A program made the position numbers and the translations under genes. This document shows, in pieces, positions 4,441 through 7,703 of a DNA stretch of 64,000 bases. Origin of the DNA: Pseudanabaena sp. PCC 6802 (GTDB lineage Bacteria; Cyanobacteriota; Cyanobacteriia; Pseudanabaenales; Pseudanabaenaceae); assembly GCF_000332175.1 (NCBI RefSeq), contig NZ_KB235914.1, positions 1,799,368-1,863,367 of the forward strand, given 5' to 3'. Below the pieces are notes generated by a model that saw only the letters and a list, made by a program, of their open reading frames with translations, ran no database searches and was not told the DNA's origin. Each line of letters opens with the position of its first letter. Positions within the stretch are counted from its first letter, which is position 1.

Positions 4441-4453
4441 GTATAGATATCCC

Positions 4454-4487
4454 ACAGGATTTTAGGGCTTAAGCCCTAAAATCCTGT
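4454..4487. terminator. 34-bp perfect palindrome between convergent genes
   Basis: Two 17-base arms (ACAGGATTTTAGGGCTT and its exact complement) meet without a loop, so in RNA the central AAGCTT-like bases would open. It sits between the stop of the deoxyhypusine synthase-like gene and the stop of the convergent ATPase gene, and each arm gives a short T-run on its strand. A bidirectional terminator is the likely role. Confidence 0.7.
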
Positions 4488-4495
4488 ACTGGATA

Positions 4496-5695
4496 TCATG
4501 GCTGAGAAAAGCTAAAGAGATCTTCCTGACTGATTAGATTTTTTGCCAAGCCACTCATAATTACATACGGTTGCATCATGGGATTGACAAATCGAAATTT
4601 GTAATTTCTTTCACTTCCTCTCTTACACAAAACCTTGCCTCTTTTATCTTCACAGAAATCACTAAGATGACGAGCAAAACCTGAAGTGCGATACTTTTTA
4701 CCCATGATTAGAGACATGGGAGTTACAACATCAGGTGGGACAAAGAAACCCAAATTATCTTTTTTGGCTAAAGCACAGGCTAGTAAGACTTGTGCATAAA
4801 TAGTTTCCCTAGAACTAGATGTAGCCTGATGATAAGCATTAAGAATACTTTGATAGGCTTTATCAACAGCTACTCGAATTGCTGAATCCAAGTCTGAATC
4901 TTCGATACTTTTAGAGCTTCTAGCAATTGCTTTTTGGGAAGCATGTAGTGCTAGCAAATGCGTGTAGCTTGGTAAACCTTGGGACAAAAACGCAATACGT
5001 TTCTTAATTTGTTCCGGCACCTCTATTTTGAGCAAGCCAAATCTCTTATCAAGTAGTTCATATAGCTCGCTTACAGACATTCTAGGCATTTGAACTTGAA
5101 CTAAAGACCTTTCTATCGATGCATGTTCGGCAATGAGTTCATTAACGGAATCAGCAACACCAACAAGAATGAGAGTGGTATCAACCAGGTGATCGGATAG
5201 CGTTTTAATTGTGTCAGCTAATAACTCAGTAGCAACACGCCCGTTACCAAGTCTGTCTAGCTCATCAATAACAACAATGGTTTTACCAGGATTTCTTTGC
5301 AGAATATATCTAATAGATTCTGGTGTAATTTCTTGGGGAGGAGTGTCAGCATGTGCTCTCAAAGAATCTACCTCACGGAATATTTTTTGCCATAGAGAGG
5401 TGAAGTCATCTATGCCATCACAATTTACGATAGCAGAATGAACTTCCTGTCCTGAAACGCTACGCATAATCTGAGAAATAACATTAGCAAGTGAGGTTTT
5501 TCCTACTCCCCGCTCGCCGTACAGGATGACATGCTGACCTTTTTGAGATACAGCGCTAATGACCTGGCTAATTTGTTCAAATCTCCCAGCAAATAGGTCT
5601 TGACTATCAATCGGAGCGCTTGGGGTAAATACCGCAGCAGCTTGTACGTAACGTTGTAGCTCCTCAGGACTAGATGGCACAAAGTTTCGATCCAC
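4496..5695 (-). CDS. Orc1/Cdc6-like AAA ATPase with C-terminal helical/winged-helix region
   Basis: The protein is 399 residues. Walker A is GERGVGKT (residues 60-67) and Walker B is TIVVIDELDR (about 139-148). The order of P-loop, Walker B, sensor region and a basic C-terminal domain of about 140 residues resembles Orc1/Cdc6-type or STAND-like AAA proteins. The only suitable start is GTG, with no clear ribosome binding site. The gene is AT-richer than its neighbours and stands alone. Upstream lies an unusual cluster of repeats (5757-5967) that could bind this protein or its regulator. Related ATPases occur as orphan bacterial genes of unknown role; replication initiation, defence and regulation all remain possible. 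Confidence 0.75.
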   Translation of the reverse strand: MDRNFVPSSPEELQRYVQAAAVFTPSAPIDSQDLFAGRFEQISQVISAVSQKGQHVILYGERGVGKTSLANVISQIMRSVSGQEVHSAIVNCDGIDDFTSLWQKIFREVDSLRAHADTPPQEITPESIRYILQRNPGKTIVVIDELDRLGNGRVATELLADTIKTLSDHLVDTTLILVGVADSVNELIAEHASIERSLVQVQMPRMSVSELYELLDKRFGLLKIEVPEQIKKRIAFLSQGLPSYTHLLALHASQKAIARSSKSIEDSDLDSAIRVAVDKAYQSILNAYHQATSSSRETIYAQVLLACALAKKDNLGFFVPPDVVTPMSLIMGKKYRTSGFARHLSDFCEDKRGKVLCKRGSERNYKFRFVNPMMQPYVIMSGLAKNLISQEDLFSFSQP

Positions 5696-5756
5696 TATTA
5701 TTGTTTAAATGACTACAATCATCTAAAACTATAGCATTATCTGTAAAAATGACAGT

Positions 5757-5967
5757 GATAACATCTAAAAATAGGGCATCAGCATCTAGTTAAGCAGAGT
5801 TAACATCTAATTAAGCCAGCTTAACGTCTAATTAAGTTGCGGAGGTTGTACGAACCCAGGACTCACCTCATCCTCGCTCAACTGCTGTTTATGTTGTACG
5901 TTGATATTATTTAACGTCTAATTAAATGGGGCTAACGTCTAATTAAGCTGCATAGGTTGTACAAACC
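5757..5967. promoter_or_regulatory. Iteron-like repeat cluster upstream of the AAA ATPase gene
   Basis: The 15-mer TAACGTCTAATTAAG or a one-to-two-base variant occurs at 5801-5815, 5822-5836, 5912-5925 and 5933-5946, with weaker copies at 5757-5769 and 5782-5794. Two copies continue into a near-palindrome, GGTTGTACGAACC (5844-5856) and GGTTGTACAAACC (5955-5967), making two similar units of about 38 bp spaced 111 bp apart. A partial third palindrome, TGTTGTACGTTGA, lies at 5893-5905. The cluster occupies the ATPase promoter side. Operator array or initiator-binding iterons are the two readings; function is inferred. Confidence 0.6.
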
Positions 5968-6627: not shown

Positions 6628-6894
6628 ATGACTCCAGAGCAGGAAAAAGAAATGCAAGCGCACGTTCAAGCTATTGCCGCCATCCTTTATCAGAATACAC
6701 CATCGGAACAACTAACCAGCTTGGAAGGGATCGAAATCGCTGTGCGGCAGCAAATCCTCGAACATGTCAGCCCAGAAATAGGGAGTTTTTTATCCGCACA
6801 GTTACGGGCACAGAAGCAGGACGCCGCAGGCGAGTGCAAAGCAGCATCGGACAGCTCCACCTCACGCAAAAGCAAGCGCAGAAGCTCAAAGTAG
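6628..6894 (+). CDS. ISKra4-like transposase, N-terminal part (frame 0)
   Basis: This 88-residue ORF begins MTPEQEKEMQAHVQAIAAILYQ, the usual start of ISKra4-family transposases. A good Shine-Dalgarno (AAGGAG) lies 9 bases upstream of the ATG. It overlaps the second ORF by 61 bp in the -1 register. The C-terminal basic tail (SRKSKRRSSK) is probably read only when ribosomes do not shift. An A-rich CGCAAAAGC tract at 6866-6874 is a plausible slip site. The product alone lacks all catalytic residues. Confidence 0.75.
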   Translation: MTPEQEKEMQAHVQAIAAILYQNTPSEQLTSLEGIEIAVRQQILEHVSPEIGSFLSAQLRAQKQDAAGECKAASDSSTSRKSKRRSSK

Positions 6895-7703
6895 CCCCCT
6901 ATAGCCAGGTGAGCCCGTATGTGGAAAGATGTAGCCTGATCTTGAGTGCGAATGTATCCTACGAACAAGCCGCCAAAGACTTAGCCATGTTGATGGGAGT
7001 GCAAATATCGCGCAGTACACAACAGCGCCTGGTGCATCGCCATGAATTTAGCCCCCTAGAGGTAGAAGAGTCGGTCGAGGAATTAAGTGTCGATGGAGGC
7101 AGAATCAGACTGCGCACGCCACTTGGACAGCCAAGTGAGTGGAAGGACTATAAAGCTGTGAACTTGCATGGACAAGCCATATTTGCCACATTTCAAGATA
7201 ACATTGCCTTAACAGACTGGGTAAATCGACAGCCTTTAGCAGATATGGTTACCTGTATTGGGGATGGACATGATGGGATTTGGAATATTATTGCCCAGAT
7301 CTCTATACCTGATAGTCGCTATGAAATCTTGGACTGGTTCCATTTGGTGGAAAACCTGCATAAAATTGAGGCTACAGCTCAACTTTTGACTGGGGTCGAA
7401 GCTTTTTTGTGGCGGGGTAATGTAACTGCAGCTATTGCTGAGCTCAATCACTTAGCTAGTCCTCAGAGCATCAATTTTATTGCTTATCTGCACAAGCATC
7501 GCCATCGTATTCCTGATTATTGGTATTTCCAAACCGAGCAGATTTGCTCTATTGGTTCTGGCGCAGTGGAATCTGCTGTTAAGCAAATCGCTAGACGCAT
7601 CAAAATCTCTGGCGCTCAATGGAACCGTGATAATGTGCCACAAGTCCTCAAACACCGTTCTGCTTACCTTAATGGCTCTCTTAACCTTGCCTTGCAAAAC
7701 TGA
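6834..7703 (+). CDS. ISKra4-like transposase, catalytic part (-1 frame)
   Basis: This ORF carries the DDE catalytic core: the first Asp in SVDGGRIRLRT, the second in CIGDGHDGIWN, followed by the family-typical EILDWFHLVENLHK, and the Glu in GSGAVESAVKQIARR. The region after about 6866 is what would be joined to the upstream ORF by a -1 shift; the nominal ATG at 6834 is probably not used. Combined length would be about 360 residues. The ORF stops inside the right terminal repeat. Everything needed for mobility seems present, so the element is probably active or only recently silent. Confidence 0.8.
   Translation: MQSSIGQLHLTQKQAQKLKVAPYSQVSPYVERCSLILSANVSYEQAAKDLAMLMGVQISRSTQQRLVHRHEFSPLEVEESVEELSVDGGRIRLRTPLGQPSEWKDYKAVNLHGQAIFATFQDNIALTDWVNRQPLADMVTCIGDGHDGIWNIIAQISIPDSRYEILDWFHLVENLHKIEATAQLLTGVEAFLWRGNVTAAIAELNHLASPQSINFIAYLHKHRHRIPDYWYFQTEQICSIGSGAVESAVKQIARRIKISGAQWNRDNVPQVLKHRSAYLNGSLNLALQN

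What the first reader, a model, noticed from the sequence alone, without database searches (positions are those of the whole stretch)
4496..5967. Orc1/Cdc6-like ATPase gene headed by iteron-like 38-bp units
An AAA ATPase of initiator-like layout lies next to at least four copies of TAACGTCTAATTAAG, two of which extend to a GGTTGTAC(G/A)AACC palindrome with conserved spacing. Iterons plus initiator ATPase is the logic of an origin or of an autoregulated mobile module; orphan ATPases of this kind in bacteria have no known role.
Basis: partly seen in the sequence, partly recalled or inferred. Interest (0 to 1): 0.6.

Follow-up and report, generated by a model that had tools for sequence, protein, structure and literature searches.

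The report
Mobile ORC-like ATPase with phased operator array
A rare, horizontally moving gene for an ORC/Cdc6-like ATPase carries in front of it a row of short DNA repeats spaced exactly 21 bases (two helix turns) apart, and the same spacing recurs in front of its relatives in phages, plasmids and transposons of many bacterial phyla, so the gene probably controls its own switch rather than starting DNA replication.

Summary
On the gene strand the core is TAATTAGA(C/T)GTTA. Copies sit in 21-bp register, and the module palindrome-R-R occurs twice, 111 bp apart. The proximal array runs down through the predicted promoter of the ATPase gene (4496-5695, -). The repeats are unique to this locus in the genome. 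They recur upstream of four cyanobacterial orthologues (78-81% identity) that lie at unrelated chromosomal places.

The larger result: the protein belongs to an uncharacterised family (phrog_6841) found on temperate phages, plasmids and IS1-type transposons. Across 32 non-redundant members, upstream DNA repeats itself at a lag of exactly 21 bp, far above shuffles, other lags, other genes and a distant sister family; about half of the members show it clearly. A shared core, about TTACTTGAAGCA, underlies it. In Proteobacteria the ATPase is carried in IS1-type transposons with perfect inverted repeats and 8-bp target duplications.

Best reading: a mobile cargo gene whose ORC/Cdc6-like protein binds its own phased operator array and represses itself; a function against other mobile DNA is plausible but unproven. 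An origin of replication is unlikely.

The parts
4496..5695 (-). ORC/Cdc6-like AAA+ ATPase gene (399 aa, GTG start; phrog_6841 family)
   Evidence: ORF; Pfam/NCBIfam; phrog_6841 E=3e-46; AlphaFold2 mean pLDDT 89; fold hits; dN/dS about 0.04-0.10 among five cyanobacterial orthologues
5717..5729 (-). gene-proximal weak repeat in 21-bp register (GTTTTAGATGATT), overlaps the predicted -10/+1 region
5728..5755 (-). candidate extended -10 promoter (CTGTCA-16-TATAGT with TG); the AGATAATGCTAT.ATTTTAGAT stretch is conserved in orthologues
   Evidence: (promoter-like sites not above shuffles), conservation
5759..5771 (-). repeat R4 (TTTTTAGATGTTA)
5780..5792 (-). repeat R3 (TAACTAGATGCTG)
5801..5813 (-). 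repeat R2 (TAATTAGATGTTA)
5822..5834 (-). repeat R1 of the proximal module (TAATTAGACGTTA)
5844..5856 (.). proximal palindrome-like site GGTTCGTACAACC (gene strand)
   Evidence: same site in L032 and, with two mismatches, L035
5912..5924 (-). distal module repeat 2 (TAATTAGACGTTA frame, TTTAATTAGACGTTA)
5933..5945 (-). distal module repeat 1 (TAATTAGACGTTA)
5955..5967 (.). distal palindrome-like site GGTTTGTACAACC (gene strand)
4446..4497 (.). 52-bp imperfect palindrome (34-bp perfect core 4454-4487) between the convergent ATPase and deoxyhypusine-synthase-like genes, probably a shared terminator; single copy in the genome

Best explanation
The locus is a single-gene mobile cargo module: an ORC/Cdc6-clade AAA+ ATPase with a C-terminal winged-helix domain, plus its own operator array. 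The ATPase (inferred) binds the 21-bp-phased repeats as a regular oligomer, one unit per two helical turns on one face of the DNA, and because the array runs through the core promoter it represses and buffers its own expression. Shown: gene, array, 21-bp register, linkage of array and gene through unrelated genomic contexts, family-wide recurrence of the register with a related core motif, carriage by transposons, prophages and plasmids, and purifying selection on the stand-alone cyanobacterial gene. Inferred: that the ATPase itself is the binder, that binding represses, and that the protein acts against competing mobile DNA when expressed.
For: Array conserved upstream of orthologues in Cyanosarcina, Pleurocapsa, Scytonematopsis and Calothrix MAGs, with modules 102-112 bp apart where complete, at unrelated loci. 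Lag-21 self-similarity in 32 representatives: mean best 12-bp match 8.25 against 6.48 sd 0.19 in 1000 shuffle sets (max 7.09); 14 of 32 loci reach 9/12 against 1.1 expected; next best lag is 42; control genes of the same contigs 7%. Signal only within 150 bp of the gene, absent at -300..-150. Newly fetched L163 shows four copies, and the 20-30% identity sister group shows none (6.53 v 6.44). Phased EM gives a shared core TTACTTGAAGCA. Nearest copies sit about 15-45 bp from the start codon. The only gene common to all these loci is the ATPase. Invariant Walker A, Walker B and an arginine at the base of strand 5 (R196), winged helix at 300-370. IS1-type transposons with near-perfect TIRs and 8-bp TSDs. 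dN/dS 0.04-0.10. GC 39% against 46-54% around it.
Against: No binding or expression data. Three 52-55% homologues in relatives of the host (L010-L012) and about half of the representatives show no clear array at the threshold used. The palindrome is confined to the cyanobacterial clade. The motif was fitted on a chosen subset of loci, so its information content is biased upward; the lag was noticed in these data before it was tested, and one of only two held-out loci (L259) shows no array.
Confidence: 0.6

Rival explanations
1. Anti-phage or anti-plasmid defence cargo: the ATPase is the sensor or effector of a stand-alone defence gene and the array sets its basal level. This is compatible with the best explanation and names its biological role.
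For: Kevin1 gp30 sits between lysis genes and integrase/repressor in the central variable region, which its authors flag for possible cluster N immunity (PMC6544188). Cashline gp34 lies between tail genes and integrase. L104 has the gene directly behind HmaB-HmaC, and the L103 transposon carries a HEC-09 NYN nuclease. ORC/Cdc6-clade ATPases with winged helices anchor BREX-like defence (PMC12839542). Rare, patchy distribution.
Against: No known defence model matches above 28 bits; two defence neighbours are anecdotal and no background rate was measured; no partner effector gene is conserved.
Confidence: 0.4
2. Transposition ATPase: a TniB/TnsC/IstB-like partner of an IS1-type transposase; stand-alone copies are leftovers.
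For: Inside IS1-type elements with TIRs and 8-bp TSDs in six loci; weak TniB and MuB-like profile matches.
Against: Most family loci have no transposase next to the ATPase; five stand-alone cyanobacterial copies are under purifying selection; the arrays lie between genes, not at element ends; phage copies lack a transposase.
Confidence: 0.15
3. Replication origin or plasmid-type initiator with iterons.
For: Fold similarity to Orc1/Cdc6, direct repeats beside an initiator-like gene.
Against: Chromosomal at unrelated places between housekeeping genes, carried inside small transposons and phage cargo regions; TIGR02928 score 43 against a cut-off of 181; no local GC-skew switch; repeats overlap the gene's own promoter.
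Confidence: 0.05
4. The array is bound by a host regulator and the ATPase is only its target.
For: The palindrome GGTTCGTACAACC is a separate kind of site, so a second binder is possible.
Against: The 21-bp array travels with the gene across phyla and is absent elsewhere in the genome, and in 386 genomes of the phylum appears otherwise only as simple heptamer repeats or chance matches.
Confidence: 0.15

Closest known systems
Archaeal Orc1/Cdc6 initiators with ORB/mini-ORB origin boxes
   Same: AAA+ plus winged-helix layout, best fold hits, repeated boxes next to the gene
   Different: TIGR02928 far below cut-off, no origin features, mobile cargo distribution, array covers the promoter
ORC/Cdc6-clade ATPases of BREX and related defence (BrxC, BrxD, DUF499/HmaC; PMC12839542)
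   Same: ORC/Cdc6-clade AAA+, winged helix in BrxC and DUF499, in bacterial mobile or defence contexts; one member is adjacent to HmaBC
   Different: Stand-alone 400-aa protein, no BREX/Hma profile match, own phased array
phrog_6841 (unknown function)
   Same: The window protein is a member (E=3e-46)
   Different: No function is given by the library; the 21-bp array is reported here
Tn7/Mu/IS21-type transposition ATPases (TnsC, MuB, IstB, TniB)
   Same: AAA+ ATPase inside transposons in some loci, weak TniB match
   Different: No transposase partner in most loci, repeats internal and promoter-proximal

Membership tests
phrog_6841 | profile match over AAA+ and C-terminal part | tested here: met
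   E=3.1e-46; all six members scanned match with E<=6e-40
ORC/Cdc6-clade AAA+ ATPases | Walker A/B and arginine finger at base of strand 5 | tested here: met
   G60..K66-T67, D144-E145 and R196 invariant in 16 sequences; strand 5 at 198-203; naming R196 as the finger is by position only
ORC/Cdc6-clade AAA+ ATPases | C-terminal winged helix | tested here: met
   helices 300-309, 320-331, 337-348 and wing strands 356-359, 366-369; Orc1/Cdc6 top fold hits
ORC/Cdc6-clade AAA+ ATPases | extra helical insert after strand 2 | tested here: inconclusive
   three helices between strands 2 and 3, not superposed
Archaeal Orc1/Cdc6 initiator (TIGR02928) | score above curated cut-off 181 | tested here: not met
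   43.3 bits
Replication origin / iteron replicon | autonomous replication or skew/marker-frequency signal | not testable with these tools
   only local GC skew seen, no inflection
Known anti-phage defence system (PADLOC) | significant profile match | tested here: not met
   best 28 bits among six members
Transposition ATPase (TniB/IstB type) | obligate linkage with a transposase | tested here: not met
   IS1-type transposase in 9 loci only, absent in the cyanobacterial and phage loci

The most novel reading that the evidence does not exclude
A widespread class of mobile ORC/Cdc6-like ATPases polymerises on a genetically encoded 21-bp-phased landing array at its own promoter, using origin-recognition logic outside replication, as a self-marking and self-limiting defence against competing mobile DNA.
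Probability: 0.25. Interest if true: 0.85.

Novelty: new variant of a known kind. Interest (0 to 1): 0.62.

Why it matters
It gives orphan ORC-like ATPases of bacteria a concrete, testable DNA partner. A 21-bp register kept across phyla while the letters drift is the mark expected of a protein oligomer reading one face of the helix, and it predicts binding sites for dozens of unnamed phage and transposon genes. If the protein is a defence factor, this is an origin-recognition module reused for regulation and immunity, carried by phages, plasmids and a class of IS1-type transposons.

Tried and rejected
Replication origin (see rivals). Repeats as a genome-wide or phylum-wide element: not found without the ATPase. 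Conserved RNA: only a chance miRNA match to the terminator palindrome. Empty-site comparison in relatives of the window's host: synteny downstream of the deoxyhypusine-synthase-like gene is lost, so the insertion boundary stays open. An equivalent test around L034 could not be run. The IS1-type TIR was not found around the cyanobacterial copies. Terminator palindrome as a dispersed element: single copy. Literature searches for this family, for IS1 elements carrying an ATPase and for such arrays found nothing direct.

Full report
Observation. The ATPase ORF is intact at 4496-5695 on the minus strand. The repeats are real: four near-exact copies and two palindromes, none elsewhere in the genome at 0-1 mismatch. 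Read on the gene strand the core is TAATTAGA(C/T)GTTA with a strict 21-bp period. Two modules, palindrome - 22 bp - R - 21 bp - R, lie 111 bp apart, and the proximal module continues with weaker copies in phase down to about 35 bp before the start codon, across the candidate promoter.

Relatives with the same DNA. Four cyanobacterial orthologues at 78-81% identity were found in genome contigs. All carry the same repeat upstream; three show the two-module plan with module spacing 111, 112 and 102 bp, and L033 is cut off by its contig end after two units. Their neighbours differ completely: glycogen synthase, murD, an RNA-binding protein gene, large signalling genes (names judged from the sequences). 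Array and gene therefore travel together. The gene is rare: 1 of 386 genomes of the phylum at E<=1e-30, and three more at 52-54% in the host's family, without a clear array. Pairwise dN/dS of 0.04-0.10 shows that the stand-alone gene is under purifying selection (dS is near saturation, so the ratios are approximate). The module has 39% GC in surroundings of 46-54%. In 386 genomes the doublet pattern turns up otherwise only as simple heptamer repeats and chance matches.

The protein. Pfam sees a generic AAA+ domain; NCBIfam's best is the orc1/cdc6 model at 43 bits against a cut-off of 181. PHROGs places it in phrog_6841, unknown function, E=3e-46. AlphaFold2 with 16 sequences gives mean pLDDT 89: AAA+ core, helical lid and a C-terminal winged helix; the best solved matches are ORC/Cdc6 proteins of Drosophila, Pyrobaculum, Sulfolobus and Aeropyrum, with RuvB and RFC next. 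TM-scores of about 0.5 say same architecture, not close kinship. No defence model matches well.

Family-wide array. Relatives were collected from viral contigs, plasmids and phages. A test for any repeated word showed pairs and triplets 21 bp apart again and again, with different letters: TTACTTGG in L104, ACTTGACGC in L101, AGTCAACGC in L103 and L106, TACTTGAAGC in L045, ATTAGATGAAC in L088, ATACTTGCAG in phage Kevin1 (spaced 42). I then tested the lag alone. In 32 representatives at 60% clustering the best 12-bp self-match at lag 21 averages 8.25; other lags average 6.46 (sd 0.28), the second best is 42; 14 of 32 loci reach 9 of 12. In 1000 sets of dinucleotide shuffles the mean is 6.48 (sd 0.19, max 7.09) and the count is 1.1, max 7. 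Upstream regions of 501 other ORFs of the same loci reach 9 of 12 in 7%. The signal is confined to the 150 bp before the gene. Lag 21 was noticed in these data before it was tested, so two loci fetched later are the only hold-out: L163 has four copies, L259 has none. A sister group at 20-30% identity shows nothing, which speaks against a general property of such promoters. A phased motif search on 26 selected loci gives the core TTACTTGAAGCA, of which the cyanobacterial TAATTAGATG is a variant.

Carriers. In Proteobacteria the ATPase is carried with a divergent IS1-type transposase inside elements of 2.6-3.4 kb with near-perfect inverted repeats (GGTAGTGTCTCAGTTTGAA) and 8-bp target duplications: L038 GGCTCTAA, L046 CGAAGCCG, L106 GACACCCC, L088 AAGTCAAC, L103 CAGTAGGC, and L041 with 7 of 8. 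The array lies between the two genes. In mycobacteriophage Kevin1 it is gene 30, in the central variable region between lysis and integration genes, singled out by its authors as an orpham of possible interest for cluster N immunity (PMC6544188). In Gordonia phage Cashline it lies between tail genes and integrase. Plasmid copies occur in Salinibacter and Clavibacter. One contig has it directly behind HmaB-HmaC, and one transposon adds a HEC-09 NYN nuclease. ORC/Cdc6-clade ATPases with winged helices are described as scaffolds of bacterial defence complexes (PMC12839542).

Mechanism. A fixed period of two helical turns with drifting letters implies a protein lattice on one face of the DNA. The only gene common to all loci is the ATPase, and it has a winged helix. 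The nearest copies lie 15-45 bp from the start codon, where bound protein would block the promoter. Hence: self-binding, probably ATP-dependent, and autorepression. Each of these steps is inferred. What the ATPase then does is open; a role against other mobile DNA fits the carriers but the evidence is contextual.

Verdict. A real and conserved regulatory architecture on a mobile ORC-like ATPase family, not described in the sources I could search. Interesting and directly testable; the origin reading is unlikely.

Noticed in passing
L103:4213-7652, L106:4965-7913, L046:4852-7646, L038:2016-4583, L088:4512-7413, L041:289-3049: IS1-type transposons (TIR GGTAGTGTCTCAGTTTGAA, 8-bp TSD) that carry an ORC-like ATPase, some with a small convergent KRKAIAKKAA protein and one with a NYN nuclease (HEC-09).
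   Followed up: partly
window 6628-7703: ISKra4-family transposase in two overlapping ORFs (88 and 289 aa), as after a frameshift, next to the module.
   Followed up: no
L112, L113, L115-L118, L120: Distant sister ATPases (23-25% identity) preceded by two conserved small genes (about 141 and 162 aa), a different operon plan without the 21-bp array.
   Followed up: no
L034:2711-2751: Three tandem copies at 14-bp spacing resembling (T/G)AATCAGACGTGA on the minus strand, away from the ATPase.
   Followed up: no
L010, L011 upstream of the ATPase: A conserved stretch about AGATATAGT..TAGACAAA.TAAGTCTCAGAAA in the 54% homologues, not in 21-bp register.
   Followed up: no
window 4446-4497: Long near-perfect palindrome at the junction of two convergent genes, single copy in the genome.
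   Followed up: yes
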